Of a DNA stretch of 64,000 bases, positions 13,901 through 62,315 are shown piece by piece (within the stretch, counting starts at the first letter, position 1; each line of letters opens with the position of its first letter). A program made the translations under genes and the position numbers. The stretch lies in the NCBI GenBank assembly GCA_014871385.1, contig CM026426.1, positions 100,108,009 to 100,172,008 on the forward strand. The letters are read 5' to 3'. Source of the DNA: Ceratodon purpureus (taxonomy: Eukaryota; Streptophyta; Bryopsida; Pseudoditrichales; Ditrichaceae). Below the pieces are notes generated by a model, which saw nothing but the letters and a program-made list of their open reading frames with translations, did no database searches and was not told where the DNA came from.

Positions 13901-13989
13901 CCCCATAGTAGCCCCGTTTTAAACAAAAAGTTATGGTTTTGTTTTAATAAAAACAAGGAGTTGATAAATGATGGTTCACAAAATAAACA

Positions 13990-24689: not shown

Positions 24690-26740
24690 CCCTGCTTACA
24701 GATAGCCTCTTAAGTTTGATCTATTTCCTCCCAGGCATTCTTGTACTGTTGTCAAAGTTTTCAGTGCTGGGCTCGGAGGTTTTGTTGAATGTAAGCCTTT
24801 GTGTGTTTCTCCCTGTAAGTTTTGTTTTGGAGATTGGCATGTCCTCTCCCTGTCAATCATCTTCTTGGAGGTGTTACCGCTCTCATAGAACAAGCGAACA
24901 ACATTCCAATTCGCTTGGGAGCTGTGAGCCATAAACCCCTTAAAGTTCACTTTAGCAACCCCGTGAGTCTCCATAATGACATTCAGATTCTTCCAGAGGA
25001 CCAATTGGGCAGCCGTGTCCTCTGACTACATGTCGCTAGATGCGATTGTCATGACTCGACAATATGTGGGATCATAAACGTGGCAGGCCATCGTTGTCTA
25101 GGATCTGAGAGGCTTGACGTGATCAAACATGATCCAAGTGTTCTCCATGTCACCGCCACTATGCATCTGCTTCACCAAATCATTTCCGCTCAACTTCAGA
25201 CATCTAGAAGACAAAGACCTTGTCTGCATCATCACCTTCCCCCTGAAACATGTTGTTCTAAACAATTTTCTAGTTGCTGAAGCCTCGTAGCATTCTGATG
25301 CTGTCCATGGTGCCAAAGCGCCAAATAGCCCTGAATGACGCGACGCAATTTATAATGTTTGGAGATGAAAGATGCTTATAGTTCTCAAAAATCAGTAGGA
25401 GCTCCTCGAGCTCCAATATCTTCTGCGGTTCAACCTCTTTAGCTACAAGTAACGGGCCCATCAACTCCTTTGATGTTTCCAGGACAATAGACGAAGGGGT
25501 GGCAAATGGAGTTCGCTCCACCTGCCCTCTCTAATCAAGGTCTCTGTGTGTCCGATGAAGTCCCGGTTCTCACAAGACTTTACTGGGTGGTCGTGAGTTC
25601 CCAAGTGTACGCAAGCTCTTGTCATGTAAGGTGCTGCAATGACGTAATAAATCTTTGCAGGGCAAAGCGCAACGCAGGTCAGAGGAGTGCTGCAAGATCT
25701 GCAGACTACAGTTGAACTCTGTGGCGGACTAGATCCAGCTTCGAACAGTTCCTCAAAAATTCCATCCCACTTAGTCTCGTTTACTACACTAGTCTTATTT
25801 AGACGTGTCAAGTATTCACAGTTGACATTGTCACAACGGAGATGGCCAAGGCACAATGAAAAACGGAATGTCAGCTTTAAGTTATTCTTAATATTAGAGG
25901 TCATTGTACGAGTCCAAGGGTGGCCATTGTACCTCCTATCCATTCCACGTAACTGCTTTGCAGTAGAGTGATGGCCGTGAGCACCTAGGGGTGGGAACTC
26001 AAAAATGATATCGCCGTTGTATTGGGGTGGAGGAATTGAACTTCCTGCATTCTAATTGCATCAAAATCAATGCGCGAGAGAACACACTTGGACCTCTTAC
26101 GGACGCTAAGCTTCATGAGTCAGTGAACAACGCTCTCTGAAAGGAAGACTGTAGGGGTAGACGGAAATGTAGACTTCATAGAGACAATTACTTCCTCACA
26201 ATTATCATCTGCAATTGGCACTGTCTTTTCCTTGCACTCAGGGACTATTGTGGTCTCTTCTACGTTTTCACTATCGGAGTCATCACTCAACTCATAGATG
26301 GTCTGAAGACATGGCTCGGTTTTCACTCTCCTCAACCATGGTCCAGACCCAATACACACTATTGTGGACAACCGGGGAGTAAGCAATTCAGTAGAAGCAC
26401 CTAAAAGAGACTTTGTAACTTTGTAAACTCTATACTTCTCAGGTTTGAGCAACTAGAACGTTCCAATCTCATTCTGACTTGACAGCTGACCCACTGCATG
26501 CAAGAATGCACCAGTGATGTCGTCAAAAATCTCCTCTTCTAATTGCAGTGATTCCTCTTGAAATTGAAAACGAAGACTCAGAGTTATAGAACTGATCATA
26601 GCACAATCATCTACCCCCAAAGACAACGCAATCGGGGCAGAATGCGAGTCTGCATGAACGTAGGCCATAGTGTCCAGACGATGAGGCACTGGCAACAGTG
26701 AGATATGGAAATGGGAAACAACGGAGAGGTGCACAAATGG
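24690..26740 (-). pseudogene. MULE transposase gene copy 2, truncated and inactivated
   Basis: A decayed paralogue of the transposase in the 15.7-kb element. Matching parts in order on the minus strand: LRFQFQEESLQLEEEIFDD (26,453-26,734); STELLTPR and an acidic linker (26,120-26,452); SRIDF and YNGDIIFEFPP (about 26,000-26,070); the WRKY-GCM1-like finger (HLRCDNVNCEYL ... CRSCSTPLTC ... RACVHLGTHDHPVK, 25,600-25,943); SSPNIINCVASFRAIWRFG; HSGGDMENTWIMFDHVK; and LWKNLNVIMETHGVAKVNF (near 24,950). The transposase site read MADNAQANW in the main copy is MAHSSQANW here, so an acidic residue is lost. It ends near 24,690, before the third catalytic region and the SWIM finger. Stops and at least three frameshifts. 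Confidence 0.85.
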
Positions 26741-27836: not shown

Positions 27837-27847
27837 TCCTGGTTATG
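27837..27847. repeat. Left 11-bp target-site duplication of the large MULE
   Basis: TCCTGGTTATG, identical to 43,535-43,545. MULEs typically make 8-11-bp duplications. Confidence 0.88.
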
Positions 27848-27926
27848 GACGTAGCTTGTACGTGAGCGGAGAGCGCAGAGCGGAGAGCGGTGAGCGCAGA
27901 TTTGGAGAGCGGAGAGCACAGAATTG
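27848..27926. repeat. Left terminal inverted repeat of the large MULE
   Basis: The first ten bases differ from the other end, but from GTACGTGAGCGGAGAGCG on, about 60 bases match the reverse complement of the right end with very few changes, finishing ACAGAATTG. It is built of GAGCGGAGAGC modules, one of which is duplicated here compared with the right end. Further in, GACCCTATAACCGTGGA is also shared (about 28,040 and the complement near 43,415). Confidence 0.88.
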
Positions 27927-28691
27927 GGGACAGAACCTTAAAATAGCAATTTTGTTTACTAAAAATAAACTATAAAATTAGAGGATTCGAATATTCTTAG
28001 TATATTTTTGGAAAGTTACTAATATTAGTAATTTTATTGACCCTATAACCGTGGATTAATTACAGTATTTTCATTGAATTTGTAGTTCGTTTTCTCTTTT
28101 CTTGGTGATTAATTTTTTAGCGTGCACCAATTACTATGCTCCAGCTCCTTCTAACTAGTTCAGGCATACATTAATTTCCCTTATCTCCTCAAATTTATAT
28201 GCAAATTACTACTTAAAATGTATTGGTATTGAACCTCTTAAAAGGAATCAAGTAACATTTAATTTCCTAACATTTTCTTAACATTGCTAGAATTCATCCG
28301 CCATAGTCTACATGCCTTACAACTTTTTATCTTTTATTTTTTATATTAACTTCCATTATTCTATCTATCTTGTTAAAGGGGTCAAAAGAGTCCTTTCCTT
28401 TAATTCTCTTTCATTTTATTTTCTCTTTTATTTTCTCAATCGCCTTCATATTTTTTTCAACCTTAATATTTATTTTTCCTTTTGTTTACTTTTCTTTTTC
28501 TAATTTCATTTTTGATAATTTTATTTATTTTTTTTTTTTTTTTGCTTTTATACTTTAATTTTTTTTTTTTTAAATTTTAAATGCTAAATGACTTTTGCTC
28601 AACCCTCATCCTTTTTCATTCATTTTAGGACGACAACTTTCGAATCAATGAAAAGTCGGTTTTCAAGGGCGCCAAGCATCATCTTCACGGA

Positions 28692-28698
28692 TATTTAA
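28692..28698 (+). promoter_or_regulatory. Possible TATA box for the 28,777 gene
   Basis: TATTTAA about 80 bp before the ATG at 28,777, after a long A+T/poly-T region. Plausible spacing, no further support. Confidence 0.35.
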
Positions 28699-28776
28699 GG
28701 TGGGATTATTGTATGTCTCTTCCTCTTTTCTGTTGGTGTTTTGTGAAGCTCTTTTCCGTAGTGCGGGACAGCAGTT

Positions 28777-29229
28777 ATGGAAGACGTTAGAGATATTGTT
28801 GTATCACTTGCTGACGATGTTTGTTCATTTCAACCATATGTTCAGGTCGAGGACGAAGAAGAGGTGATGGCCAACAGCCAAGGGCGTCCTTTGACAACGG
28901 ATGTTGACGTACAACTGGATGTAAGAGCTGACCCTCCACGTTCAGAAAATTCGGATGATATCAGAGTGCTGGAGGAGAACGCAGATGTGCCTTGGCAAAC
29001 TCATGCATACTCCAGGGTTGGAAAGATCCCAAGGGGAACCTATTCCAGAGAATCAGTGAATCGGAGGCGGGGAGGTGGGCCATTGCTGAAACGTTCATAC
29101 CAAGGACACTTGCCAAGTGTTGGAACGAAAGTGAATGCAAATGTAGTTTGTCCGGTAGTACAGTCAGAGGCTGGCAGTCCTGCTGATACTGTAGTGGGCA
29201 ACCCTAAACGTGTTAGGTTCCAAGATTAG
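28777..29229 (+). CDS. Small hypothetical protein of the large MULE
   Basis: A 150-residue frame from ATGGAAGACGTTAGAG. The first half is acidic (VEDEEEV, RSENSDDIRVLEEN), the middle basic (SRESVNRRRGGGPLLKR), and the end is NPKRVRFQD. K-R-V-R-F fits the RVxF motif that docks protein phosphatase 1, but such short motifs occur by chance. No domain, signal peptide or membrane segment. It is the first gene inside the left end, oriented inward, with a TATA-like box 80 bp upstream, and it converges with the transposase. It could be an element accessory protein or an incomplete exon set. Unknown function. Confidence 0.45.
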   Translation: MEDVRDIVVSLADDVCSFQPYVQVEDEEEVMANSQGRPLTTDVDVQLDVRADPPRSENSDDIRVLEENADVPWQTHAYSRVGKIPRGTYSRESVNRRRGGGPLLKRSYQGHLPSVGTKVNANVVCPVVQSEAGSPADTVVGNPKRVRFQD

Positions 29230-29483
29230 GACATCTAATAACAAGTATATGTTTGCCGTAATAAATGGTACATGTCAGGGGATACGAGGTATATATTACA
29301 CTTCTTCAAGATAGAATGTATTGAAATAGAGTGCAATCAATGCGAACGACAGAGCCTTTAATATAATGAAAAAGTCAATACAGCTTCTGAATTGCTGACT
29401 TAGTACATGGTATATTACTAAAATCATTCACTACGTGACAAATGGCCATTGTGGAAACGGCAGTTCTAAAGTAGGAGGGCTAC

Positions 29484-32400
29484 CTACTTCTTCGCCAAGG
29501 GGTGACGCAAGATTCCACTCTCTAGGAGAAGCTTGACCTCGTTGAAGCTAAAGGTAGGCGCATGGATGAAAAGCTCGGCCTCGGGATCACGGTTGCAGAC
29601 CTTCAAGAGTATGTAGTAAAGGTGCTTACAATACGTGAACTGAGTCCTGCCTTTGAACGTAGTCATCGTCTTCTTGAATGCTGGGCAAGTGCAACCAGGG
29701 TAAGAGCTCATGGTAATCTGGTAACGTGTGATGTGTGGAGCGACGCCCGAATCCAGCCCAATGATGCAACCGTGGCCTGGCTCAGGTATCATGGTGACGG
29801 AACGGAGGCGCGCTTTGAGAGACTCGGAGGAGCCCATGGATAGTCGCTGCGCCGGATTGGGACGAGTGGCAGTGCGCTTCACCATCTTGCCGTCTCTCTT
29901 GCCTAGGTAGCGGTCAGCGTCTGCAGGGACTGGCACCGAGTTGAGATTCGCAGGGGGCGGGGCAAAGAAGAAGAGGCGTCTTGGGGAGACCGGCTTCTTC
30001 GGCGGAAGTTGAAAGCCTGCTGCTTCGAGGGCAAGAATCTCAGTCAGTTTTAGGTTAGTACTTAGTTTCACTGGCCAGACCTCAGGAATGGAGGGGAATT
30101 CCTGGTCCTTTGAGTAGTGCGCTACCCACTTGCGCTTAGAACCTTTCACGCAGCGCTCAATATCGTCGGAGCAGAAGAAGAACTCTGTCTTCTCAACTGT
30201 GTTCCTGCGATAGTTAGTCCAGAGCCCAGTGTTTGTTGGTGCAGCTGTGCAAAGGGGCCCCCTGACGATTCTCTCAGTGCACTTCTTCTTCGTTTCAGCT
30301 CTTTGGGCCCAGCAGCACTTCGCAGAAAGTTTGTGTAGTCTCGAAATGTGCCACTCCTTCACGTCCACCTTGGTTTCTTCAACCGCGTTGACATGGCGAA
30401 TGCCGCCCTTGTTCACAGGTGAAGGTAAAGGGGAATGAACTTCCTGGGCAGGAGGTTGCGTACATTGTACCTCGGTGTCGTGTTCGGAGTCGACTTCCAC
30501 AATGACGGGCATCTGCATAGGGCGAGCTCTGACGGCACGTCTTGGGCCTCTTGGGCGTGAGAAGTTTGTCTTGTCCGGGCGATGAGACTCCTCGTCAGCT
30601 CCGATGGGGACGTCGGCTTTTCGCTTCCGTGAACCGAAGACTTCCGCTTTAGGCATGATAGGGTGACGGGTGCAGAACTCATCCGCTCCTGGCATATCGG
30701 GCATGGGATTTTCGAGCAGTGTAGGATTTCCCCATCTCTTCACGTTGAGTTCCGCCATCCGGAGCCTGAGTTCCTTCTTGGACGGTCCTGTTCCGCCGAC
30801 GCCACCTTTGAGGAACTGGTAGTAGTTGACAACCTGTAGAAAAGCCCGAACAAAATTGTCCACGGTAGCAACGTAGAGGTCGTTCCCGTTGTTTCCTGAA
30901 GCTTGGAGCCACTTGTTGTGAACTGTTTCGGCGAGGTTAGAGGTGGGCATCTCTGTGAGTTCTTCTTTCGTGAATTTCTGCAGATTTGGCAGTAGGTGCC
31001 GTTAGATTCACGGATTAGAGTTTTGTAGGTTAGGGCTAGGAAACTAGTATCAAAATCATGAAAACAGAGTGCAGAGATAATACCTCGGTCATGAATCCCC
31101 CCCACTGGCGGAAGCGGTGGTGCCAGAATGACAGCCACTGATTGAGTTTGATGAGCCCGCTCTCGCCAACGACCCCGGTGGATGCCCACCATGCTCGCAA
31201 CGCGTGGTACAGAGTTTCCGCCTCTGCCATGCTGGTAGCATTCTTGTACTGAGTGCACATCTTCTTGTGCTGTTCCCAAAGTTCTTCGAGGAAGTGCTTC
31301 TGCGTATACGCCACCATGTTCTGAGTCCAGTGGAACAAGCACGACCTCTCCCGGTCCTCCATTGGGTCCTCTTTGTTGCCATTGCCGTAAAGGATTTGCA
31401 CTGCATTCCAATTCGCCTGTGCGTTATCCGCCATGAACCCCTTGAAGTTCGGCGCTGCAACGCCATTGATCTCCATGACCAGGTTCAGGTTTTTCCAAAA
31501 GACGAGCTGGGCGTCCGTGTCCTCGGACTGCATGTCGCAAGTGGCGATTGTCATCACGGGGCAGTAGGTGGCGTCGTACACATGGCACGCCATGGTCGAC
31601 CAATCTTTGACGCGTTTTACATGGTCGAACATGATCCATGCGTTCTCCAAGTCGCCACCAGCTTGCATTCGGCTGACCAAGTCGACACCACTTCCCGGCC
31701 CGACCTCCGACATCTTGAAGAGGAAGACTTTGTCACGCATAGATCCCTGACCAGGAAACCTATTCTCCTGGACATACGCCTAGAGACTGTTACCACGGAG
31801 CTTGGTGATACCGTCCATGATTCCGTACCTTTTGAATTTTTTGAAGGTGGCGACTTTGTTGCGGATGTTTGGTGACGCCATGTCTTTGCAACGATCCAGA
31901 ACAGGAACCAGCTCCTCCATCGTCAGCTTCCTCGGTGGTGCATCTTCGGGCTGTAGAAGGTAGCTCCCGATGAGGAGTTTGCTCGCCTCCAGGACAACGG
32001 CGCTCTTTGTTGCTTTGTTGTTCATCTCTACTTGCTCTTCTATTAAGCTACTAATTTCTGCTTTAGAGTCTCTGTAGTCTCCAACTTTCACTGGATGATC
32101 ATGTGTTCCTAGGTGAATACATGCTCTAGTCTGATTTGCTTTGCCCACTACGTAATAAATTATAGCCTCGCATGTAGCTACACATGACAGTGGTTCTTTA
32201 CATACCTTGCACATTAGCGTGGAATCAGATGGAGGAGGCTGATCCATGAGAAAAGCTTGCAGGGTACACCTATCGAACTCAGTCTCGTTAACATCGAAGA
32301 TCTTGGGAACACGCTTCAGAAAGTCACACTCCTCGTTGGTGCAGCGCAGCCATCCGACGCAGGTGGAACTTCGAAAAGAGAGTCCGAAGTCGTTCTTGAT

Positions 32401-33240
32401 GTTTGTTGTGATGGTCTTGGTCCACACGTGTCCGTCGTATCGTTTGTCCATTCCCTGCATTGACTTGGCGGTGAGCTTAGAGGATCCTGCAGCAGCTGGG
32501 GGCAACTCAAAAAGAACCGGACCATCAAACTTCGCAGGCAAGTACTGTACTCTCTCGTGTCTAATAGTTCAATAGTCTATCTTCTTCAAAATGTTTTTGG
32601 ACCCACGCGTCTTAGCAATCTCTTTAAGGAGCGGAACAATGCTAACTGTGACCTGGGACAATGGAGGAGACACATTGGAAGGAGGAGCATCTGCGTGGAG
32701 CTTAGGCACCAACTTGACGGGACTGACTTCGTCATCAGAAGAGAGAGATATGACGGTCGGAGGAGGTTTCTCTACATCTGAAGTCTCGGTACCAGGCTCG
32801 ACTTTGACCTTGACATCACGAGGTAAGGGAGTCTGAATTGTGCAAGTAGAAGAGCGACGGGGGGTGAGGATCTCAGTGGATGCAGCCATCAGAGAATCAG
32901 TAAGACCATAGACTCTATAGGATCCAGGAAGGAGTCTCCAGTGCAACATGTTGTTCTCATCTCTCACTGAAGGTTGCCCGAGGGTGTGGGTAACCTCGGC
33001 AGTAACGTCATCAAAGATCTCCTCCTCTATACTGATGGAATCCTCACGAAAATGGAATCTGAGACTGAGGCGAAGAGAGGACACCGTAGCTAGACCATCG
33101 TCATCTACGCGAAACCTAAGAGGGATGCCCATGCCTTGGGCGTACAGACAGACCATCCCCATATTCGCAGGCAACTCAGAGATACTAGAGGAAGAAAGGA
33201 AAAGAGGGAGTGTACTAGCAAAGCAGTATCGCGAGAGCAA
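29484..33240 (-). pseudogene. MULE transposase with WRKY-GCM1-like and SWIM zinc fingers; two in-frame stops
   Basis: About 1,216 codons in one spliced frame. Parts: an N-terminal domain shared by all four copies in the window (MGMVCLYAQGMGIPLRF, STEILTPRRS); an acidic linker; a WRKY-GCM1-like finger (32,060-32,420: WLRCTNEECDFL ... CKVCKEPLSC ... RACIHLGTHDHPVK); the MULE catalytic domain (31,084-31,740: HVYDATYCPVMTIATCDMQ, NFKGFMADNAQANWNAV, LNQWLSFWHHRFRQWGG); a 106-bp intron (30,978-31,083, GT-AG, phase kept); PTSNLAETVHNKW; a basic linker; and a SWIM finger (YPGCTCPAF ... YCKHLYYIL, near 29,600-29,680). MULE transposases cut at the inverted ends. TGA at 32,569 and TAG at 31,780 interrupt the frame, so this copy is probably inactive unless read through. 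The exact start is uncertain. Confidence 0.85.
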
Positions 33241-33764
33241 AGTGAGAGGAATGATGCATTGTTGTTGATCTTTTTATTCAAATTGGAATGTCCATGTAGA
33301 CGACTAGGTAATGATTCATTCTGTTACGTAACGAATGTATGATTAAAGAGAGACGGCGCTAACTAATTAGAATGTTGCTTTTTGCAGGCCCAAATTAAAA
33401 AGGTAGGAGTTTTTAGAACTACTCATTTAATAATTGAATCGTGGGATTTATTCTATTCGATGTGAAGTTTGGTGAGATTAGAGTGAGCCGTCAGTTGGAT
33501 CCATATTTAATACAAGTATTCAAGTGCTTAATTCAAATCTTTTTATATGTTGTGAGCTTGGTTTATTCTCTTCCAATATAGATTGATCTCATCAACTTTA
33601 ATTCAAAATGCAATTAATTATAGTTTTCATTAATTTAAGTAGGTTTAGAATAAGGTAAGTATTTAGGGCTGAGTCAGGGGGGTTGAAGGTTTGGGATATA
33701 TAAGTTAGAGGGAAGTAAGGAGGAGAGCTATATTGTGAGGAGAGTTCACTCGTTAGTTAGACAC
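33241..33764. promoter_or_regulatory. Divergent intergenic region with a TATA box (33,697-33,703) for the plus-strand gene
   Basis: Between the transposase and the cargo gene, which are transcribed away from each other. TATATAA at 33,697-33,703 is 62 bp before the ATG at 33,765, good spacing for a plant core promoter. No clear TATA was seen toward the transposase. A shared region would allow joint control; that is inference. Confidence 0.5.
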
Positions 33765-36700
33765 ATGAAGGAGAGTGGAGGGTCAGATCCCTCCACTTAT
33801 GTCACTCCTAGACCTAGAAGAAAACCAAGTGGTACAGATTTTATGAATAGGAGAGCGAGGAAGAGGAGAGAATCACGTAGAAAGGCGAAGTCGACAGGCA
33901 ACCACTTGAGTGCACCTCTAAAGGTTCGAGGCGCTGGGCTGCCTTTGGCAATTAAATTTTGCAGCATTCGTAAACTCATTCTAGAGTCCATTGTAGAGGT
34001 AAAAGAAGAGGTTTTAGTGGACAACATAGTTGAGCATCAGGAGCATGAGGTAAGAAGTAGAGGGGAAAAACAGATAGAGATGACGGAAGAATTAGGGTTC
34101 AATTGCAGTCCGACTTTGGAGACACCACAACCTTCTTTCGGATTCAAGGAGTGTTCGACAAGAGGGACGGATACACAGTCGGGTGACCAGTCTAACAAGG
34201 ATGTGGTAAGTTTCATAATTGATACATTTAAATATGCTTCATGTAAAGTATGTATATTAGTAGATTTATATTAAGTTTTACGTGTTGTCTTGGTTGCGGG
34301 TTTATTTTTTACTGCAATGAATATTTGATGCGTCATGAACTGAATGATTGTTTAAAATAGGAGAGCCGAGTAGTAAAACTGGTCATTGCTCAAATATATG
34401 CGCAGATTGTCGATTGGTTTAGAATTGAGGAAGACGTTGCAGAGGAAAAGACGCCAGAAGTGGATGCGGGCGAGGATTCAGATACTGAGATTTTGATAAA
34501 AGTGGCTCGGAGAGCGAGACGCGAAATCGTGGAGGCGGGCGAAGGAGGCGAAGCAATAGCTGTAAGACAGGCGGGACGAGGGGACCCAGGAAGTCCATTG
34601 GAAAGGAGTATAGACGAAGATCATTCGCAAGATAGGATGGCGGGGCCCGAAGTCGACATCCAGTCTGAAGAGGGTGAGGTCGCGGATCGAGGGAGAGAGT
34701 TAGATGTTACAGAGAGAGGGAGAGGTCGAGGTAGTCGAGGGAGGGTCAAGAGTAAGGGCACTTCCACACTCAAGGTCGCGGCATCGCAGGTGGAGGCTTC
34801 TGAGGGGAGAATGGCTGCTAGTGGAAAAGACCGTGGTCTGGAGGAGATGGACGCTACGGGTGTCGACACGGATCGAGATGCAGCGACGGAGGAGGTAAGA
34901 GATCCGATCGAATCATTTGTTGTTGTGGGTTTGTTGAATGTAGCAAGGTATTGGACTCGGGATTCAAAAATTGCAATGCAACAAGTCGCGCATTGTGAGG
35001 TTCCGATTGCATTCGCATATGCAACTTCGACAGATTGGGCATTAGATGGGGATTGGACATTGAGTGGGGATGCCGGGATTCAAGTGAGGGCAGTAGATGG
35101 GGATTCGGGGCCGAAAGGGGGGAGGGGCGTGAGGGGAGTGATGGGGGATGTGCGGGCACTGGGTGCATTGGGTGGGGATGCGGGGATTCAAGTGAGGGCA
35201 GTACATGGGGATTCGGGGCCGAAAGGGGGGAGGGGGGAGAGGGGAGTGATGGGGGATGTGCGGGCACTGGGTGCATTGGGTGGGGATGCGGGGATTCAAG
35301 TGAGGGCAGTACATGGGGATTCGGGGCCGAAAGGGGGGAGGGGGGAGAGGGGAGTGATGGGGGATGTGCGGGCAGTGGGTGCATTGGGTGGGGATGCAGG
35401 GATTCAAGTGAGGGCAGTAGATGGGGATTCGGGGCCGAAAGGGGGGAGGGGCGTGACGGGAGTGATGGGGGATGTGCGGGCAGTGGGTGCATTGGGTGGG
35501 GATGCGGGGATTCAAGTGAGGGCAGTAGATGGGGATTGAGGGCCGAAAGGGGGGAGGGAGGAGAGGGGAGTGATGGGAGATGTGTGGGCAGTGGGTGCAT
35601 TGGGTGGGGATGCGGGGATTCAAGTGAGGGCAGTAGATGGGGATTCGGGGCCGAAAGCGGGGAGGGGGGAGAGGGGAGTGATGGGGGATGTGTGGGTAGT
35701 GGGTGCATTGGGTGGCGATGCGGGGATTCAAGTGAGGGCAGTAGATGGGGATTCGGGGCCGAAAGGGGGGAGGGGGGAGAGGGGAGTGATGGGGGATGTG
35801 CGGGCAGTGGGTGCATTGGGTGGGGATGCGGGGATTCAAGTGAGGGCAGTCGATGGAGATTTGGGGCCGAAAGGGGGGAGGGGGGAGAGGGGAGTGATGG
35901 GGGATGTGCGGGCAGTGGGTGCATTGGGTGGGGATGCGGGGATTCAAGTGAGGGCAGTAGATGGGGATTCGGGGCCAAAAGGGGGGAGGGGGGAGAGGGG
36001 AGTGATGGGGGATGTGTGGGCAGTAGGTGCATTGGGTGGGGATGCGGGGATTCAAGTGAGGGCAGTAGATGGGGATTCGGGGCCGAAAGCGGGGAGGGGG
36101 GAGAGGGGAGTGATGGAGGATGTGCGGGCAGTGGGTGCATTGGGTGGGGATGCGGGGATTCAAGTGAGGGCAGTAGATGAGGATTCGGGGCCAAAAGGGG
36201 GGAGGGGGGAGAGGGGAGTGATGGGGGATGTGTGGGCAGTAGGTGCATTGGGTGGGGATGCGGGGATTCAAGTGAGGGCAGTAGATGGGGATTCGGGGCC
36301 GAAAGCGGGGAGGGGGGAGAGGGGAGTGATGGAGGATGTGCGGGCAGTGGGTGCATTGGGTGGGGATGCGGGGATTCAAGTGAGGGCAGTAGATGGGGAT
36401 TCGGGGCTGAAAGGGGGGAGGGGGGAGAGGGGAGTGATGGGGGATGTGCGGGCAGTGGGTGCATTGGGTGGGGATGCGGGGATTCAAGTGAGGGCAGTCG
36501 ATGGAGATTTGGGGCCGAAAGGGGGGAGGGGGGAGAGGGGAGTGATGGGGGATGTGCGGGCAGTGGGTGCATTGGGTGGGGATGCGGGGATTCAAGTGAG
36601 GGCAGTAGATGGGGATTCGGGGCCAAAAGGGGGGAGGGGGGAGAGGGGAGTGATGGGGGATGTGTGGGCAGTAGGTGCATTGGGTGGGGATGCGGGGATT

Positions 36701-37930
36701 CAAGTGAGGGCAGTAGATGGGGATTCGGGGCCGAAAGCGGGGAGGGGGGAGAGGGGAGTGATGGAGGATGTGCGGGCAGTGGGTGCATTGGGTGGGGATG
36801 CGGGGATTCAAGTGAGGGCAGTAGATGGGGATTCAAGGCTGAAAGGGGGGAGGGGGGAGAGGGGAGTGATGGGGGATGTGCGGGCAGTGGGTGCATTGGG
36901 TGGGGATGCGGGGATTCAAGTGAGGGCAGTCGATGGAGATTTGGGGCCGAAAGGGGGGAGGGGGGGAGAGGGGAGTGATGGGGGATGTGCGGGCAGTGGG
37001 TGCATTGGGTGGGGATGCGGGGATTCAAGTGAGGGCAGTAGATGGGGATTCGGGGCCAAAAGGGGGGAGGGGGGAGAGGGGAGTGATGGGGGATGTGTGG
37101 GCAGTAGGTGCATTGGGTGGGGATGCGGGGATTCAAGTGAGGGCAGTAGATGAGGATTCGGGGCCGAAAGGGGGGAGGGGGGAGAGGGGAGTGATGGGGG
37201 ATGTGTGGGCAGTGGATACAAGGGAGGGCAAGGCCGCGAGTTCAGTCATGGCTGTAGATTGGGAGATTATTTGTTTTCATATAAACTTTCTCTTTGTTTT
37301 TGTTTTATGATTTCTTGTAATTTGTTTTCTATCTGTGTTGTAGGAGTTCACGGATCAACTCACTGCGACTGAAGGTGATGGTCCAACACCTGCAGAAATT
37401 GAGGTAATTTTAATCTTATTTGCTTTTGTCTTCAACATTGCATTTTTATTAAAACTTTCTTAAGTAGTTTTGAAAACTCAAATGGTAAGTTGACATTGTC
37501 TTCGTCTCTATGCTTGTAGGGATTCTCAGATGCACCCTTGTCCATCAGTTCCCCGATCTCAGTAATCAATGTTTCCGACCTCTTGGATTCATTTGATCAG
37601 CCCCATTTACGTAGATGTGATTTAGGAACCCCTGTAGACTTAGGTAGTGGACCTCTCGAGGTCCACTCTCCTCAGTACATGCCTACGTCCCCTGTCTATG
37701 AGCCTACATCCCCGGGCTACATGCCTACTTCTCCACGACTTGGTACCCCGCCGATGTCTCCACCTTCTCCTTCCTCGCCTATTAGAGTGAGGAGGCGAGC
37801 CCATGTTGTCTTCGCCCTACCTGCGATACTGCCTTGCCTTGTCCAGCAGACCAGGCGTTTTTGGAGGAGGCGCCGTCATTGGAACTGTAGACAGGCTAGG
37901 GAGTACTATAGCCGTGCTCCACGTACATAG
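33765..37930 (+). CDS. Spliced cargo gene: basic N-terminus, 36-residue tandem repeats, CTD-like heptads
   Basis: Exon 1 33,765-34,205 ends at a GTAAGT donor; exon 2 34,361-37,253; exon 3 37,344-37,403 (60 bp, EFTDQLTATEG...); exon 4 37,520-37,930. Every junction is phase 0, strong support for a real gene. The start is chosen at the first ATG after the TATA box (MKESGGSDPSTYVTPRPRR). Exon 1 has a nuclear-signal-like NRRARKRRESRRKAK. Exon 2 begins with a helical part (VVKLVIAQIYAQIVDWFRI) and an RG-rich part (ERGRGRGSRGRVKSKG), then the 108-bp repeat array. Exon 4 holds YMPTSPV-YEPTSPG-YMPTSPR and ends in a basic tail. A TGA at 35,537 and one extra G near 36,961 break the repeat frame in this copy. 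Whether it joins the methyltransferase-like exons downstream is unresolved. No known family. Confidence 0.6.
35040..37215. repeat. 108-bp tandem repeat, 20 copies, with 432-bp higher-order pattern
   Basis: GATTCAAGTGAGGGCAGT recurs at 35,077 and then every 108 bp to 36,913, then at 37,022 and 37,130 (one unit is 109 bp). Each unit encodes 36 residues, roughly AVDGDSGPKGGRGERG then VMGDVRAVGALGGDAGIQVR. Variants recur every four units: units 7-10, 13-16 and 17-19 share the series ...D-S, D-L (CGATGGAGATTTGG), W, PKA/MED. Because 108 is a multiple of three, frames on both strands stay open across the array. Confidence 0.92.
37676..37738 (+). other. Three RNA polymerase II CTD-like heptads
   Basis: Codons at 37,676, 37,697 and 37,718 start YMPTSPV, YEPTSPG and YMPTSPR, matching Y1-x-P3-T4-S5-P6-x of the polymerase II tail consensus YSPTSPS. 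SPQ precedes and TPPMSPPSPSSP follows. The Thr, Ser and Pro codons differ between heptads (ACG/ACA/ACT; TCC/TCC/TCT; final Pro CCT/CCG/CCA), so the protein pattern, not a recent DNA copy, is conserved. Confidence 0.75.
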
Positions 37931-38067
37931 TGGCCCCTGTAGTACTTCCTACTGTGGCTTATGATTTGTTATTCAAACAAGATGTATCAGTACAGGAAGC
38001 TATTGTTCTACCTATCTTCACAATTGTTCGATTTCCTTTGATCCTCATAATGTATGACTTATGGCAG

Positions 38068-41000
38068 GTAACCCAGACACAGGATACGTTGCCAGCGCCC
38101 TCTTGTCCTAGTGAATTGACGAATGTAGTTGACAGTGAATTGGGACATCGGGTACAACACAAGCAAGACTCCAATGGCGTCATCAACAAGGTCCGAATTC
38201 ATCCAACGTCAAAGTCACGTATCCTAGTTCCCCTTTGCAGAATGCTCTCTATGGCAAAAGTGCGACATGTGGGAGAAATGGGAGTTCAACATTTGGAGCA
38301 AGACTTTGTCAAAGGCTACAGAGATGGAGACAGAGTCATGTACATTTCCATGTACAACCACGAAGAGAAGACAGCCGATGTCACTGAGGAGACCAAGGCT
38401 CAGTGGAGCCCTTGTTGGCAAAAAGCGAATGATGCTTTCGAGGATGAGCTCTTGGCGGACTCGGATTGGAAGGAGTTTTCTGGGAAGATGTTCTATGTCT
38501 GGGAAGGTAACCATCGCCTTGCTGCCTGGTACAAACATATCAACAACCATCACAGCGATGATCCTGCGTGGCACATCTCTGTGCACTGCATTGTTCTCGA
38601 CCCACGCGGACATGTGGGAAACCTTCTTCATGCCATGCACGACATCAATTGGTGAGAATATGAATCCCCTCTATTTTGGCCAGACGTCTTGATGTTTATG
38701 CATTTTACTAACTACCGTCTATTTGTGCAGGTCTACAGAAAATGATCATGTAAAGAGCAATCTTCCGGCTAAACTTTTCCAAATTCGCTCCTTCGGTGTG
38801 ATGAAATTGGAGGAATTCAAGGATCTGCTCACAGCAGAGGAGTATCAAATATCTTTGAATCATAAACCACATACTCCATCCTGGTTTACCTTGCCAACCA
38901 AAGTCTTCATCGCGTTTCTTTATCGTGTAAGCACTTCATCCATCCTTTCTCACACTTCCATTCGACAATTGATTTTTGTTCGTCTCTGTACTAAAAAGGG
39001 GGATAACTATGTTTTCCAGAGAGAAGTCGTGGCGGCCTCAGAGGAAGCTGCAAGAATCTACAAGGAGAAAACAGCCATTGAAGACCAAACCGCAGGAGGT
39101 GTTTGGGATGCCATGACTGCGGCTTCAAACAACATGGTCGAATCCATTAAGAAGAAGGACTTCACCAAGTACTTGACAATTGCAAATCCCAAGAACGATG
39201 ACAACTTCCTCAATGAGATGATACCCTTACCGTGGTTGAGTTCAGTATTTCGTTTCACTACTTTATATTTGTATTCATATTTCCTAAATCTTCTCTACTT
39301 GTTGCAGATTAATCGGCATTACAGTGACAACTCTAAACCTGAGATGTCACTCGATAAGCTTCAGAAGGTTGTTCCAGCGGCTGTTGAGGCCAAGTACAAG
39401 GCTCGTTGGTTGAGGTGGTGGAACTCATCTCCGACTTCCCGAAAGTCTTACAGATTTCCGCCATCAGAATTCAAGGACACGGATTTCGACCCATGGTTGA
39501 ACAAAGCTTCGTTCTGGGCCGGGGTGAGTTTCATTCATGAAGCGTTCTTCATTCATGACTTGAACCTTTCTTCTGTCCCTCATTTCTTCGTTACTACTAC
39601 TGATATATATTCTGTATATTAGTTGGAGGAAGCCGTCATCAACGAAGTCGAGGGCATATGCAAGGCGGAGAACCTCGTTATCAATTAGAAGGCATTTCCT
39701 CATGTACAAGAGCCGGGCGACTTTGTCGAGAGTTCACGTATTCTATTATGGGACAAGGCCTTCCCTACATTCGTTGGAAAGAATGCTGAGAAGGTGTTCG
39801 ACAAGAAATCCAACTTCGCTAAATTCCCTAGAGCTGCTGAGGTTGTCAAGCGCGTTACTTACCGGTAAGTTACTTCCCTTAATCATATTCAAATTCCATA
39901 ATGAGCTCTACATATCTTTCACATACTAACCTTCTCCATATTGGTTTCCTTAGGTACTTTAAGCGAGAGCTTGTTCTGAAGGGGGCACTAAAAGTTCAGC
40001 AACTGCCTCATTACTATACTGCTTGGACGTCGAGAACCTCGGACCAGTGTATGTACTCTCCGAAACAGCTGAAAAGGTACAGAAATCCTCACTTGCTTGA
40101 GGGATGCTGGTATCTTGATTGCTCTCGTGGTTTCACGATTGACTCAGAGGCAGACGTCAAGACTCTACACGATGGGGGTGAGGTTGTGGTGGAGGACTCC
40201 GTGGACGATGTAGAAGGTCCTGTAGGAGAGCAGGATCAGTCTTCTGCTCCACCACCGAAGAGAGGGAGAGGAAGGCGACTGAAATCTCTGCGTTCTCGGT
40301 CAGAGGCATCACAGCAAACTGGTGCGGAGTCTTCCGCGCCAACTGAGAAGGCACCAGAGTCCTCTCCGGGTATTGTTGTTACGAACCCTTCTCCAGCTTC
40401 TTCGCGGGGTCCTTCCTCGATCAGTGCTTCGGAGATCACCAGAGGTCTCCTTGAGCAGAGGAAGGCCAAACTATATCCTCAAACAACTTCTTCCGCTGGA
40501 GCTTCAATTTCCACACATGTTGCCGTCTTCAACTCATCTGTGGATTCCATGTTACGGCGAAATAAGAGACAGGAGAGAAAAGGTGGCGACCCGGATTGGA
40601 TCAAGACTCAAGACTTCATTCGCAAGGTATGTTCCGATATTTTGACATTTAATGGATTCTGCCACCTCTACTCGCTATGTAGTTACTAACTCTCCTTTCT
40701 TGTTTCCTCAAGTTTGGAGCAGGCCGCGAAAACGAAGTTCCGGACCGCTGCAAACAAGAGGACCATCTGGGAGTCGACTTGATCATTGCCGACATCCCTG
40801 AGAATCTTCCCGTCCCATCCGTTTCCGTTCCCCCCACGAGTATTCCGCCTTGGAACTCTCGCGAGAAGGATTATGTGTTCGACATCTTCCGTTTTGCAGA
40901 TAAATTCCTGCAGAAAGATGGTGCCATCTGCCTCATCTACAACACTGATCAGAAGCTGGCTAAGGATATCGACGAAGAAGCTGCCGGTGGTGACTACGTG

Positions 41001-41954
41001 CTCTTCAAGGACTGGTGGGGCGTCAATGTCCTCGGCCTCACTTCTCCTACGAACCCCGAGAACTTGGTACTTTTCCTAAACATACCCTTCTCTTTACTTA
41101 CTGATAACCCTTCCGCTTAAGTTTACTCAGTAGTTTTGCTTCACTGCAGACTATGCGGTTCTGGATTCGCGTCTACGTTCGTAGTGGCAGTACTTTCTCC
41201 TTCCAGACAAAGAAATCCGAACTGATTCATGGGAGTCTCAACATTACCGAGAGTGATGCCATTTTCAACTTCACCGATGTGGAATCGCAGCTCATGAATG
41301 GGGAGGTGCCGTGGAGAGGCCCAAGGGAGAAATCCCCTCAGATGATGCAAGACATAATTGAGGAGCTGTCGAAGCCCGGCGACATAGTCCTCGACTGGAA
41401 TGCAGGGACAGGTAACTATTCATACAAATCTCTGCTTAATTATTCCTCTCATTTTGTCCTCTGTTTCCCATTTCTTAGCTTCTCTCCGAGTTTCAGGGGC
41501 CTCCATCAAGGCTTGCCAGGCTATTGGTCGTCACATTCTCGCTTTTGAGGAGGACGAAGCCATATTCAACGCCCTTCTCAAACCATCCGCCATGGGCCCT
41601 CCTAAACATCCAAGGCCGGCAGCAGCAGGCGAAGCGCCTCCAAAGAGACCAAGACCTGATAAGTGGTGTAAGTCTTCTATTCTTTGATCAAATTATCCAA
41701 GCGTTACTTCTCTTTGCAGCTCTACGTACTCGATGTAACCACAGTCGGTTCTCTATTGCAGAGTAGTTTCAGCAACACCGCCACGTGGGCCAACATCAGT
41801 GTCCACTCCATCGTGGCGTCTTCATTCCAGCCCGATTCAGCCTTTCATACTTCCGGATTACGTAGAGGACTTAGCACAGGCGTTTCAATCTGGAGCCCTG
41901 ACATATGTTCCTAGTCGGCCAACTACTTTTGATCCCAGTATGATCGACGAATAG
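38068..41954 (+). pseudogene. ParB-like plus N4/N6 DNA-methyltransferase-like gene, about 10 exons, one in-frame stop
   Basis: Exons: 38,068-38,651; 38,731-38,926; 39,020-39,244; 39,308-39,523; 39,623-39,864; 39,954-40,626; 40,713-41,066; 41,150-41,411; 41,497-41,667; about 41,764-41,954. Phases agree at the junctions; introns are 63-99 bp. The first region has FYVWEGNHRLAAW then HISVHCIVLDPRG, like the ParB/sulfiredoxin G-x-x-R-x-x-A pattern. A helical middle and a linker with PPPKRGRGRR (AT-hook-like, about 40,250) follow. The C-terminus has DLIIADIPE (40,776-40,802) where beta-class methyltransferases have a DPPY motif, then PWRGPREKSPQMMQDIIEEL and KPGDIVLDWNAGTG-ASIKACQAIGRHILAFEEDE, where the family has KP...DPFAGSGT...R...E. 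Such enzymes methylate adenine N6 or cytosine N4; DIPE and DWNAGTG suggest altered or lost activity. TAG at 39,686 breaks this copy. Reading frame continues open upstream to about 37,912, so the true 5' exon is uncertain. Confidence 0.65.
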
Positions 41955-42180
41955 AAGGGCCAACTACTACCCTAAACCTAAACTTGTTATGATTCTCATA
42001 TCCATTTTGTCTCCGTGTTTGTAAAGGATGAAATGTCACAACTGTAATGCTCAAAATATAATATGAAGAGTGAAATGTTACAAAAGAAAGGCTCAAAAAT
42101 AATATTGCGCTGTTATTTATATTTTACTCATTCAAAATCCCACATTTCCATAGCCATGTTACCTATTCTTGACTTGGTGT

Positions 42181-42360
42181 ACATCTTGGTTTCTGCTACT
42201 CCATTATTCTACACGAACTCTGAAATATTCCACGAACTTTTAAGACCATCTCTTTTAGTTGGTTTCGAGTTGTCTTATTCCTAGAATCGTCTATATTATC
42301 TAAAACCATTATGGTGGAATACTCGTATCTAGATCCAATAAGGGACCAAATCTAAAGGAA
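42181..42360. repeat. Direct repeat flanking a small minus frame, copy 1
   Basis: TTGGTTTCTGCTACTCC...ATTCTACACGAACTCTGAAATATTCCACGAA and later CAAATCTAAAGGAATGTAT recur at 43,062-43,275 in the same order, with about 880 bp offset and many substitutions. Confidence 0.65.
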
Positions 42361-42392
42361 TGTATTCGAACACCCCACTACACTTCACAGTA

Positions 42393-42776
42393 CTAATCCT
42401 TCGAAGGATATACAGTCCAACTCTTGTCCATATCAAACCAGCAAGTTTCGCCATCCGATATGATCACTTCGGGCAGCTGAACAACTGGATTGTCATCGAC
42501 GTTCGATAGCAAAGGATATGGGATTAGGGACAACTCCATAATACGGAGAAGCTCATTGGTACAAAGCACTGTCCAACGCCATTCACCTTCACCAACATGG
42601 AGGCTTCCGATGTGCCTAAACGGTGGCAGGTCCATGCCTCGTTCCCTGGCGCGCTCCACCTCCAGCAGCCACGGCCGCAGCTCCTCATAACTCGCCGGTG
42701 CCTTTGGGGGCAAACCTACAGCCGCTCTCGTCCTCCTGGATCTCGCATTACACACCTTCGGCATCGCGCAACACAC
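42393..42776 (-). CDS. Hypothetical 127-residue protein in the right arm of the MULE
   Basis: A minus frame opening MCCAMPKVCNARSRR with a coding-like middle (SYEELRPWLLEVERARERGMDL, FRHIGSLHVGEGEWRWTVLC) and an acidic end (VVQLPEVIISDGETCWFDMDKSW). No known domain. It lies between two direct repeats (42,181 and 43,062) close to the right inverted end. It may be an exon of a larger minus gene or a captured fragment. Confidence 0.4.
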   Translation of the reverse strand: MCCAMPKVCNARSRRTRAAVGLPPKAPASYEELRPWLLEVERARERGMDLPPFRHIGSLHVGEGEWRWTVLCTNELLRIMELSLIPYPLLSNVDDNPVVQLPEVIISDGETCWFDMDKSWTVYPSKD

Positions 42777-43061
42777 TAAATTGTTGTAGTCTTAAAACGT
42801 TACACTCAAGCTTGTAGATTGACATCCCCGAACTCCTACGCTACCTTCGCATACAGCACAGCATGCCAAGGACTGTGTCACTATCCAAATACGCCACCTA
42901 GAGACAAGCTCAAGAAACCAAGAGTGACCTCCTTCTCTGGAACCCAGCTTACCAAGTGTTGTTTCATGATGAAAATCTCCTACTTCTATCACTCAAATGA
43001 AGATGCTTTGCTGCCTAGGAAGAGAGAGTAATCTTCGATGAAGACAAGGACTCTAACAAGG

Positions 43062-43275
43062 TATATCTTGGTTTCAGCAGTTAAGATATTATACACGAAT
43101 TTTGAAATATTCCAGGAAGTTTTCAAACCTTGCCTCCTTTACGTTCTTTCAAATTTGTTTTTTCCCTTGTGCATTTACATAATCCTATGAAAGAATTATT
43201 TGTTTGATCTAAAACTCAACGCCTGATCATTGTATCTTGCCTAAACCCATGACTAATCTAAAGGAATGTATGCAT
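43062..43275. repeat. Direct repeat flanking a small minus frame, copy 2
   Basis: Diverged duplicate of 42,181-42,360 (TTGGTTTCAGC...TTATACACGAATTTTGAAATATTCCAGGAAG, then CTAATCTAAAGGAATGTAT). Confidence 0.65.
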
Positions 43276-43463
43276 GACGTCATCATGACATCAGCCCTAA
43301 TTTGTATCTTTGAGAACAAACGTAATAAATTCTTACCAGAGATAACCCTAATTTCCACGGTAATATACTCTTTTTCTAAAAAAAGTGTCAAAATTAAGCC
43401 TTAATTTAGTAATTTTCCACGGTTATAGGGTCTACTTTGCTTTTGAAAATTTTCCTAATTGTC

Positions 43464-43534
43464 AATTCTGTGCTCTCCATTCTGCGCTCACCGCTCTCCG
43501 CTCTACGCTCTCCGCTCACGTACGAACTTTCCCC
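43464..43534. repeat. Right terminal inverted repeat of the large MULE
   Basis: The reverse complement reads GGGGAAAGTTCGTACGTGAG then CGGAGAGCGTAGAGCGGAG and on to ACAGAATTG, matching 27,848-27,926 except for the outer ten bases, a missing GGAGAGC module and few substitutions. Confidence 0.88.
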
Positions 43535-43545
43535 TCCTGGTTATG
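43535..43545. repeat. Right 11-bp target-site duplication of the large MULE
   Basis: TCCTGGTTATG, identical to 27,837-27,847. Confidence 0.88.
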
Positions 43546-49472: not shown

Positions 49473-50257
49473 ATGGAGGTTGCTTTGTTGAATGTGCTAT
49501 GCAACCTTGTTCTAAAGTCCCTTCATATAGAGAAGGAAGTCTACAATGACAACAGCCACTTAAGTCACACTATCTATCAAATTCTCATCTATAATGATCA
49601 AAGAGAAGAGTGGCTTCTAGAGACTAGAAAGGATGCGGTGCATGGTTTGACGCCAAATTTGGGAGCTTCATCTACCGAGATTCTAACGCCGCGCCGCTCT
49701 GCTCCATCCATTGTAGAGACTTTATTCCAGTCAAAGGTTCATATCTTTAGTGAGTGAGACAATGAGGACGTACCTCCTCCTCATCACTCCACACCCAAGG
49801 ACTTGCCAAGGTTTGCCACGATTGATAAGAGTGTGCAATCTTGCTTGAAAAGGCTATGTTCACTCCCTTGAGTATGTTGTCCAAAATTGATTACTCTAAG
49901 ATTAAGATGCTTAAGGTCCTTGTCTTGCCATCTGAATACAACGGAGATGTCATCTACGAACTTCCTCCAATTTCTCCATGCATGAGGCCAAGTAGAGCGA
50001 GGCTTATGCTAGAGATGGACAAGAATTTTGATTCGAATCCGTTGTGTCAAACAAAGACATTCAATATGGCAAGGGACATGAACTTAACATTTTGTTATTC
50101 AGGGTGTGCAAGACATTTGAAGTGCACAAATCTTAACTACGGTTTCTTCAATCGAGAGCCTATGGCCTCGGAGCTTAATGAAAGCATTGAGTGGTTTGGA
50201 TATATGTCCACGCCATTTGTAGTCAAAGAATCTTTGCAACTCATGTCTGCTCTTTGA
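49473..50257 (+). pseudogene. MULE transposase gene fragment, copy 3 (N-terminal middle to zinc finger)
   Basis: Matches the transposase of the large MULE: LHIEKEVYNDNSHLSHTI, GASSTEILTPRRSAPSI, then LSKIDYSKIKMLKVLVLP, EYNGDVIYELPPI, and the first half of the WRKY-GCM1-like finger (ARHLKCTNLNYGFF), stopping at KESLQLMSAL. A stop at 49,757 and a frame change lie between. It shows that SKIDYSKI is the expected reading where the main copy has IDY-stop. Catalytic domain and SWIM finger are absent. Confidence 0.8.
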
Positions 50258-62312: not shown

Positions 62313-62315
62313 TGC

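What the first reader, a model, noticed from the sequence alone, without database searches (positions are those of the whole stretch)
27837..43545. A 15.7-kb multigene Mutator-like element bounded by inverted ends and a perfect 11-bp duplication
Seen: inverted repeats of about 70 bp at 27,848-27,926 and 43,464-43,534, immediately flanked by TCCTGGTTATG on both sides. A chance match of 11 bases in exactly these positions is very unlikely. Between them lie a MULE transposase and several spliced genes on the other strand. Known: MULEs make 8-11-bp duplications and can carry host gene pieces. Inference: this is an autonomous-type MULE lineage that carries its own accessory genes, including a ParB/methyltransferase-like gene, rather than a simple Pack-MULE.
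Basis: partly seen in the sequence, partly recalled or inferred. Interest (0 to 1): 0.95.

Follow-up and report, generated by a model that had tools for sequence, protein, structure and literature searches.

The report
Moss jumping gene carrying DNA-binding cargo
A large transposon, present in very many copies in what looks like a moss genome, carries next to its transposase a bacterial-style DNA-binding and methyltransferase-like gene whose recognition half is swapped between copies, and many copies also carry lineage-biased palindromes that may be its binding sites.

Summary
The ends are real. The element is 27847-43534 with a 10-bp target duplication (TCCTGGTTAT); the 11th matching base is chance. 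All 13 elements whose two ends I read (window included) have perfect 10-bp duplications at different sites; one has a demonstrated empty site. Transposase and cargo lie together in one head-to-head order: 35 of 64 listed transposase loci (random 0.4), and 75 of 92 in diverged families (random 0.3). So this is one mobile unit, not a Pack-MULE. This copy's transposase is broken; 62 of 64 listed relatives have an open first exon.

Cargo: a spliced gene with a ParB-like GNHR exon and an N6/N4 DNA-methylase domain, a pairing already reported in giant algal transposons. New here: (1) the catalytic DPPY reads DIPE/DVPE in all 11 copies where that exon was read; (2) the ParB half is exchanged between copies (synonymous divergence 2.5-3.1 against 0.12-0.15 in the transposase); (3) many elements carry lineage-biased palindromes resembling ParB sites. 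I infer an element-specific self-recognition factor, perhaps anti-silencing. The Mutator label fits the anatomy but no profile confirmed it. Host inferred: Ceratodon purpureus, sex chromosome.

The parts
27837..27846 (.). left target-site duplication TCCTGGTTAT (10 bp)
27847..27926 (+). left terminal inverted repeat, GGACGTAGCTTGTACGTGAGCGG..., GAGCGGA-type internal repeats
   Evidence: same start in 10 of 10 left-end copies fetched; p1 and p2 begin GAGGG.. instead
28777..29229 (+). small ORF (about 150 aa), function unknown
   Evidence: conservation not validly tested (my query was in a wrong frame)
29484..33162 (-). transposase gene, 2 exons (33162-31084, 30977-29484), 1190 aa with 2 in-frame stops; D/D and C-x2-H motifs, C-terminal SWIM-like CxC..CxH (motifs read by eye)
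   Evidence: 34 metagenome relatives; 64 genome loci scored of 2775 candidates, 98-100% to P0002, 62 without stops
33687..35058 (+). upstream ORFs/exons U1 (33687-34205) and U2 (34361-35058), probably 5' part of the cargo gene or a separate gene
   Evidence: diverge strongly or are unalignable in most copies compared, near only in p1
35058..37215 (+). minisatellite, 108-bp unit x20, holding TTCGGGGCCGAA dyads (10)
37344..37930 (+). further 5' exons (37344-37403; ORF U3 37520-37930)
   Evidence: U3 matched in 12 of 12 other elements, dN/dS about 0.15
38068..41957 (+). cargo gene: ParB-like exon 38068-38651 (WEGNHRLAAW), exons 38731-38926, 39020-39241, 39308-39523, 39623-39864 (one in-frame stop), 39954-40626, then methyltransferase exons 40713-41066, 41150-41411, 41497-41666, last exon about 41761-41957; splice sites placed by eye
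   Evidence: N6_N4_Mtase PF01555 E 1.6e-8, 35.2 bits vs cutoff 26.7
42393..42764 (-). small ORF near right end (about 120 aa), 95-98% identical and without stops in the 6 copies that have it whole; a piece in p2, in two pieces in p3
43463..43534 (-). right terminal inverted repeat ending ...TTTCCCC
43535..43544 (.). right target-site duplication TCCTGGTTAT

Best explanation
A cut-and-paste, Mutator-type DNA transposon that moves as one unit of transposase plus a ParB-like/methyltransferase-like accessory gene. SHOWN: ends, 10-bp duplications, eight elements read with both genes, co-location of the two genes in one order at 110 of 156 listed transposase loci, purifying selection on both genes, replacement of the catalytic DPPY by D(I/V)PE in every copy where it was read, exchange of the ParB half between copies, and lineage-biased palindromes in many elements. 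INFERRED: the ParB half binds these palindromes as a dimer or clamp, so each element lineage recognises its own DNA; the C-terminal methyltransferase fold no longer transfers methyl to a base amino group and serves as an effector or interaction module, most likely to keep the element's chromatin open (as VANC proteins do for Arabidopsis VANDALs) or to help transposition; swapping the ParB half and its array together changes specificity, letting sublineages escape host silencing or cross-regulation.
For: 13 of 13 elements with both ends read (window, 10 of the 39 other left-end hits, 2 of 3 fetched ParB-chosen loci) have perfect 10-bp duplications; c3's joined flanks align gap-free (97%) over the window's own transposase gene, an empty site. 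35 of 64 listed transposase loci have a listed ParB exon (22 class A, 13 class B, 0 both) in the same head-to-head order, random 0.38; 75 of 92 for the diverged families, random 0.28, 0 only in another order. dN/dS (ratio of sums over copy pairs) 0.16 transposase (36 pairs), 0.09 ParB (40 of 45 pairs; 5 with uncomputable dS dropped), 0.32 methyltransferase (45 pairs). ParB half against c1: dS 3.1, transposase 0.12, methyltransferase 0.14; c4 shows the reverse identity pattern; module trees conflict in AU tests; of 150 listed methyltransferase exons (92-100%) 39 follow ParB A and 52 follow ParB B. DIPE in 10 of 10 family-1 copies with that exon, DVPE in the second family. Palindromes: CTCGGATCCGAG 8 times, dispersed, in the one second-family element read, perfect dyads 12-42 bp; 0 of 200 shuffles repeat any 12-bp palindrome; C(T/C)ACTGTC..GACAGT(A/G)G in the 6 class-B-like elements (c1, c2, c3, c5, c7, c9), in none of 8 others, with an arm change matched on the other arm; TCGGNNCCGA in 3 of 4 class-A elements.
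Against: No binding, expression or methylation data. Palindromes were found post hoc and tandem copying inflates their counts; lineage bias could be common descent of the arrays. The TCGGNNCCGA core is shared by class A and F2 (9), so it is not lineage-specific; p2 has only a wider-spaced form; c6 and c8, whose half ParB exon resembles c10's, lack c10's dyad. In 12 of 13 family-1 elements no 12-bp perfect palindrome occurs twice. The class-B grouping of c3, c5 and c9 is by eye. 29 of 64 transposase loci had no ParB of the two listed classes near, though the ParB lists were cut at 150 of about 1900 candidates. Only 4 of 10 cargo genes read (c1, c4, c10, p1) had no stop in the exons tested. Window-p1 ParB dN/dS is 0.71, on very little divergence. 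The motif could have changed without loss of activity.
Confidence: 0.6

Rival explanations
1. The cargo is a working N6-adenine or N4-cytosine DNA methyltransferase aimed by its ParB domain at the element's own DNA, marking it epigenetically, as proposed for the algal proteins.
For: PF01555 match above cutoff; best-scoring solved relatives are adenine MTases DpnA (E 9e-5) and CcrM (0.003); algal precedent and proposal in PMC12477816; GTG of motif I kept in the 7 family-1 copies shown (window included).
Against: Motif IV is DIPE or DVPE instead of (D/N/S)PP(Y/F/W) in 11 of 11 copies seen, aligned to DPPY of DpnA; in the second family motif I reads DLTTSTAS, without the glycines.
Confidence: 0.2
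2. The ParB-like protein is a transposition accessory factor (like maize MURB or Harbinger Myb-like proteins, recalled): it bridges element ends or internal sites and loads the transposase.
For: Stable pairing with the transposase across deep families; F2 palindromes include ones near the ends of the stretch read, at 301, 343, 13992 and 14119.
Against: The ParB half varies far more than the ends and transposase with which it would have to work; family-1 palindromes lie mostly in the arrays of the cargo region rather than at the ends.
Confidence: 0.15
3. Ordinary gene capture: a host or bacterial gene fragment hitch-hikes in a Pack-MULE-like way.
For: MULEs are known to carry gene pieces (recalled; PMC6446971 abstract in the listing).
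Against: Spliced, under purifying selection, found in the same order in families whose transposases are only about 60% alike.
Confidence: 0.03
4. The palindromes and the swapped half reflect only ancestry: old element lineages recombined a few times, carrying their private satellites along, and the dyads have no role.
For: Palindromes of family 1 sit mostly in tandem arrays inside the exchanged region; post-hoc discovery; c6 and c8 lack c10's dyad.
Against: F2 sites are dispersed, with dyads up to 42 bp; matched arm changes in class B and F2; both directions of mosaic (c4 against c7 and c10) and 39 versus 52 pairings argue for repeated exchange.
Confidence: 0.2

Closest known systems
Sola1-1_Ec32, 21.5-kb giant transposon of Ectocarpus, with a 1104-aa ParB-like + DNA methyltransferase accessory protein on the strand opposite the transposase (PMC12477816, passages read)
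   Same: ParB-like plus N4/N6 methyltransferase domains in one protein of similar size, opposite strand to the transposase, giant element; that paper says transposase genes of its giant families are frequently pseudogenised
   Different: Other transposase superfamily (Sola1) and brown algal host; no sequence compared here; catalytic motif, module swapping and palindromes are not mentioned in the passages I read
Giant EnSpm elements of red algae with accessory genes (Petroll et al. 2025, Bostrychia moritziana) and green algal ParB-methyltransferase-like transposon proteins (Iyer et al. 2011); both seen only as cited in PMC12477816
   Same: Giant red-algal EnSpm elements with several accessory genes; similar proteins in red and green algal transposons, as that paper cites
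   Different: EnSpm and other superfamilies; I could not read either source
VANDAL/VANC anti-silencing system of Arabidopsis Mutator-like elements (PMC5735166, abstract and passages)
   Same: Mutator-type elements carrying an accessory gene whose targets often form tandem repeats that vary between related elements; conserved domains plus highly variable regions
   Different: VANC is not described there (in the passages seen) as ParB- or methyltransferase-like; VANDALs lack or have short degenerate TIRs (PMC6446971 passage); anti-silencing is demonstrated there and only inferred here
mudrB / Mutyl MutB-type second ORFs of Mutator elements (PMC6446971, passages)
   Same: Extra ORF beside a Mutator transposase; MutB is antisense
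   Different: No ParB or methyltransferase domain mentioned; this review text held no 'methyltransferase'
ParB-parS partition systems of bacteria and plasmids (recalled)
   Same: GNHR-type motif (xGNHRxxAW) and palindromic sites
   Different: Eukaryotic transposon; no ParA noticed; binding untested; no profile match

Membership tests
Mutator superfamily (MULE) | 8-11-bp target-site duplication | tested here: met
   10 bp in 13 of 13
Mutator superfamily (MULE) | Long terminal inverted repeats | tested here: met
   about 70-80 bp, 48 nt core at 94%; shorter than the 'hundreds' called common but within the range tabulated (PMC6446971 passages)
Mutator superfamily (MULE) | DDE transposase with MULE domain, often zinc finger/SWIM | tested here: inconclusive
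   D..D, C-x2-H and SWIM-like CxC..CxH visible (motif reading from memory), but no Pfam MULE, SWIM or FAR1 match in 35 proteins and no PDB relative (two chance-level matches, best E 0.42)
Pack-MULE | No transposase of its own; captured host gene pieces, usually not under selection (recalled) | tested here: not met
   own transposase gene; cargo under purifying selection and recurring
Transposon-borne ParB-methyltransferase accessory proteins (algal class) | N6/N4 DNA methyltransferase domain | tested here: met
   PF01555 above cutoff, PHROG DNA methyltransferase 4.4e-10
Transposon-borne ParB-methyltransferase accessory proteins (algal class) | ParB-like DNA-binding domain | tested here: inconclusive
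   conserved (V/I)W(E/D)GNHR core in the alignment of 46; no Pfam ParB match; no structure available
Transposon-borne ParB-methyltransferase accessory proteins (algal class) | Encoded inside the transposon, opposite to the transposase | tested here: met
Catalytically active amino-methyltransferase | Motif IV (D/N/S)PP(Y/F/W) | tested here: not met
   DIPE x10, DVPE x1; motif consensus recalled and seen in the DpnA alignment
VANC-type anti-silencing factor | Binds element-specific repeat motif and removes its methylation | not testable with these tools
   lineage-biased palindromes found; function needs experiment

The most novel reading that the evidence does not exclude
A transposon-borne, partition-derived self-recognition system in a plant: each element lineage encodes a ParB-like protein fused to a methyltransferase fold that has lost its catalytic motif, and carries its own parS-like palindromes; the recognition half and its palindromic array are a swappable cassette, exchanged between otherwise near-identical transposons, comparable to specificity-subunit shuffling in restriction-modification systems, and used for element-specific anti-silencing or control.
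Probability: 0.35. Interest if true: 0.92.

Novelty: new variant of a known kind. Interest (0 to 1): 0.8.

Why it matters
ParB-methyltransferase transposon proteins have been suggested to bind and mark their own element (PMC12477816); the passages I read name no target site. Here one genome gives four transposase lineages (ours and groups near 99, 75 and 60% of F2) with the same two-gene order, hundreds of listed cargo loci, a specificity half that is visibly swapped, and candidate binding sites that differ between lineages. That makes self-recognition by a eukaryotic transposon directly testable by EMSA or DAP-seq, and the conserved D(I/V)PE motif questions the assumption that these proteins methylate DNA. 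It also extends the kind from algae to (probably) a land plant and to an element of Mutator-like anatomy.

Tried and rejected
Rejected: 11-bp duplication (10 bp in all 13 read). Rejected: an alternative code reading TAG as a residue; both genes end in TAG, an intact transposase relative and the other cargo copies have ordinary residues at the window's in-frame stops. Rejected: 'no homologue' of the cargo: (973-aa query) found none, probably because gene callers split it by exon and candidates are limited by length; the single ParB exon found 45. Viral or phage origin by close relatives: 0 relatives confirmed in viral contigs (limited by peptide patterns); 78 phage records matched, and in the 15 listed the match is to the methylase C-terminus only. 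No Rfam match in the window. The ORF1 conservation test and the last-exon stop counts used wrong frames and are not used. Not done: structure prediction, genome scan for the palindromes, search for an empty site of the window's own element, census of the c10-type ParB (not completed).

Paper searches. In the listings I saw, none reports a Mutator-type element with a ParB-methyltransferase gene, or a moss one; this covers only the open-licence library. The Ceratodon genome paper is not held; BOGRE is a name I half recalled for a Ceratodon transposon and searched for without useful result, so these elements may already be catalogued there under some name.
Full report
OBSERVATION. The two 11-letter flanks and the inverted ends are present exactly where stated. 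In the window no other pair of exact 10- or 11-bp direct repeats adjoins matching inverted ends; 0 of 10 shuffles gave one at 11 bp and 1 of 10 at 10 bp. Reading other copies shows that the element starts with the G at 27847, so the duplication is TCCTGGTTAT, 10 bp, and the element is 27847-43534.

GENES. On the minus strand lies a two-exon transposase gene (33162-31084, 30977-29484), 1190 aa, with two in-frame stops here. A search found 34 relatives among metagenome proteins, one 96% identical over the aligned part. On the plus strand lies a gene of at least ten exons (38068-41957; splice sites by eye) with a ParB-like GNHR exon and a C-terminal N6/N4 methylase domain (PF01555, E 1.6e-8, above the cutoff), one in-frame stop here. 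Further exons or a second gene (33.7-37.9 kb) enclose a 108-bp x20 minisatellite. The ParB exon alone found 45 metagenome relatives; in the alignment of 46 the core W-x-GNHR is nearly invariant. One transposase relative and one ParB relative lie on contigs of the same length, 674,632 bases, probably the same contig.

GENOME. The window is C6:100108009-100172008 of a 362.5-Mb genome whose C6 has 110.5 Mb, that is 30%. A review gives Ceratodon purpureus 358 and 349.5 Mb with UV sex chromosomes of about 30% (PMC13120521, passages), so I infer that moss and its sex chromosome; no tool named it. The left end gave 40 scored matches of 1333 candidates. In all 13 elements with both ends read (window, c1-c10, p1, p2) the 10-bp flanks are identical and differ from site to site. 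The third ParB-chosen locus, p3, was cut at the right and is interrupted, so it is not counted. Copy c3 sits in the transposase gene of another copy; its joined flanks align over the window's own transposase gene with 97% identity and no gap: an empty site. For the window's own site no empty site was shown.

CONTENT. Transposase over its whole length plus complete ParB exon and methyltransferase exons: 8 of 13 (window, c1, c2, c4, c7, c10, p1, p2). c5 has a transposase remnant and the whole cargo; c3 and c9 have part of the cargo and no transposase; c6 and c8 have part of the transposase and an inverted half ParB exon. None of the 8 family-1 transposases read is free of stops or frame breaks, and 4 of 10 cargo genes (c1, c4, c10, p1) have no stop in the exons tested. 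But a genome search with P0002 listed 64 loci (of 2775 candidates), 98-100% identical over exon 1, 62 without stops. ParB class A: 150 scored of 1890; class B: 150 of 1900; no locus in both. Of 64 transposase loci 22 have a class-A and 13 a class-B exon in opposite orientation at 3.8-11.2 kb, none both, none in another order; 0.38 expected at random. The remaining 29 had neither, which the cut lists may explain.

A SECOND, OLD FAMILY. In locus p3 the element is interrupted by another (F2): transposase 37-58% and ParB 38% identical to ours, same head-to-head order. I found only one end of F2. F2-type ParB: 150 scored of 1799, 29 at 79-100% and nearly all the rest at 46-58%. F2-type transposase: 92 scored of 2236, in groups near 99, 75 and 60% with some between. 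75 of 92 have a ParB exon 2.3-15.8 kb away in the same order, 0 only in another order, 0.28 at random; 19 of the first 25, 21 of the next 30, 35 of the last 37. The pairing is therefore old and stable.

METHYLTRANSFERASE MOTIF. Motif IV, aligned with DPPY of DpnA, reads DIPE in all 10 family-1 copies in which that exon was read (window, c1, c2, c4, c5, c7, c10, p1, p2, p3) and DVPE in F2; c3, c6, c8 and c9 gave no match to that exon. Motif I is DWNAGTGAS or close in most, EWSTGTGAS in c5, DLTTSTAS in F2. The strict conservation with dN/dS 0.32 suggests a changed job rather than decay. That DPPY-type residues hold the target base is recalled knowledge.

MODULE EXCHANGE. Along the element, copies c1, c2, c7 and c10 are 86-99% identical to the window, mostly above 92%, in the left arm and transposase (1-5300) and 90-99% again from about 12,600 to the right end, but 67-75% or unalignable over most of U1-U2, array and ParB (short U2 and U3 pieces up to 86%), with intermediate values (71-93%) in the middle exons; c4 is near in ParB (84-91%) and far in the middle and methyltransferase exons (67-82%). 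Synonymous divergence window-c1: transposase 0.12, ParB 3.1 (near saturation), middle exons 0.48, methyltransferase 0.14; for c2, c5 and c7 ParB 2.5-2.8 against transposase 0.12-0.15; c10 ParB not computable. dN/dS over family 1 is 0.16, 0.09, 0.18 and 0.32, the ParB figure from 40 of 45 pairs. AU tests on 8 copies: ParB and methyltransferase data each reject all four other module trees; transposase data reject the ParB, methyltransferase and right-arm trees but not the left-arm tree (p 0.25). Of 150 listed methyltransferase exons (92-100% identical; of 1690 candidates) 39 follow a class-A ParB, 52 a class-B ParB, 59 neither listed class, 0 both.

PALINDROMES. Arrays differ between copies in period and sequence (108 in the window and p1, then 117, 171, 383, 254, 212, 245 bp). 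F2 holds CTCGGATCCGAG eight times, dispersed from 301 to 14119, with perfect dyads of 12 to 42 bp and some flank changes matched on both arms; none of the 13 other elements has it, though the window has 7 places within two mismatches. No 12-bp palindrome occurred twice in any of 200 shuffles of F2. The six class-B-like elements c1, c7, c5, c2, c3, c9 hold C(T/C)ACTGTC..GACAGT(A/G)G (12, 4, 1, 1, 3, 3), the other eight none; grouping of c2 rests on the tree and of c3, c5 and c9 on the sequences. Class A: TTCGGNNCCGAA 10 in the window and 26 in p1; a spaced form 6 in p2; TCGGAGCCGA 3 in c4; this TCGGNNCCGA core is also in F2 (9). c10 has another dyad twice; c6 and c8, with a c10-like half ParB, none; 36 kb of window outside the element none of these. 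The motifs were chosen after looking, tandem copying inflates the counts, and in 12 of 13 family-1 elements no 12-bp perfect palindrome occurs twice. The F2 case is the strongest, but it is one element.

KNOWN. PMC12477816 (passages) describes a ParB-like plus methyltransferase accessory protein in a 21.5-kb Sola1 element of Ectocarpus, cites similar ones in green and red algae, and suggests that they bind and modify their own element. PMC5735166 (abstract and passages) shows that VANC anti-silencing proteins of Arabidopsis VANDAL elements bind motifs that form tandem repeats varying between related elements. PMC6446971 (passages) gives 8-11-bp duplications and extra ORFs for Mutator elements. 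Our element combines the algal type of cargo with a Mutator-type anatomy and a VANC-like pattern of variation. Whether it is a true Mutator member is open.

VERDICT. Real, multigene, recently mobile; cargo of a reported kind in a new setting with new features. The mechanism of self-recognition is my inference.

Noticed in passing
24837-26668 (-) and 49401-50646 (+): Decayed relatives of the same transposase lie outside the element (pieces of 29-74% identity); the cargo exons found no match there.
   Followed up: partly
G000 contig C6 against the others: ParB exons with in-frame stops: 28 of 113 on C6 against 11 of 187 elsewhere in the two capped lists (Fisher p 4.6e-6, loci taken as independent): copies may decay more on the putative sex chromosome.
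   Followed up: partly
G000, ParB loci: 300 distinct ParB-exon loci in two capped lists plus 150 in a third list not cross-checked by script, mostly without stops: an unusually large family.
   Followed up: partly
7247-9823 (+): Looks like a decayed hAT transposase gene (by eye).
   Followed up: no
54678-62582 (+): Ty3/gypsy-type retrotransposon polyprotein pieces (by eye); possibly a second partial copy at 2097-3924 (-).
   Followed up: no
window 37676-37728; U3 ORF 37520-37930: Heptad-like YMPTSPxYEPTSPGYMPTSP repeats resembling the RNA polymerase II C-terminal domain (resemblance recalled); a 21-bp repeat of this kind recurs in c1, c2, c3, c5, c9 and c10.
   Followed up: no
42393-42764 (-): Small ORF, 95-98% identical and without stops in six copies, no assigned function.
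   Followed up: partly
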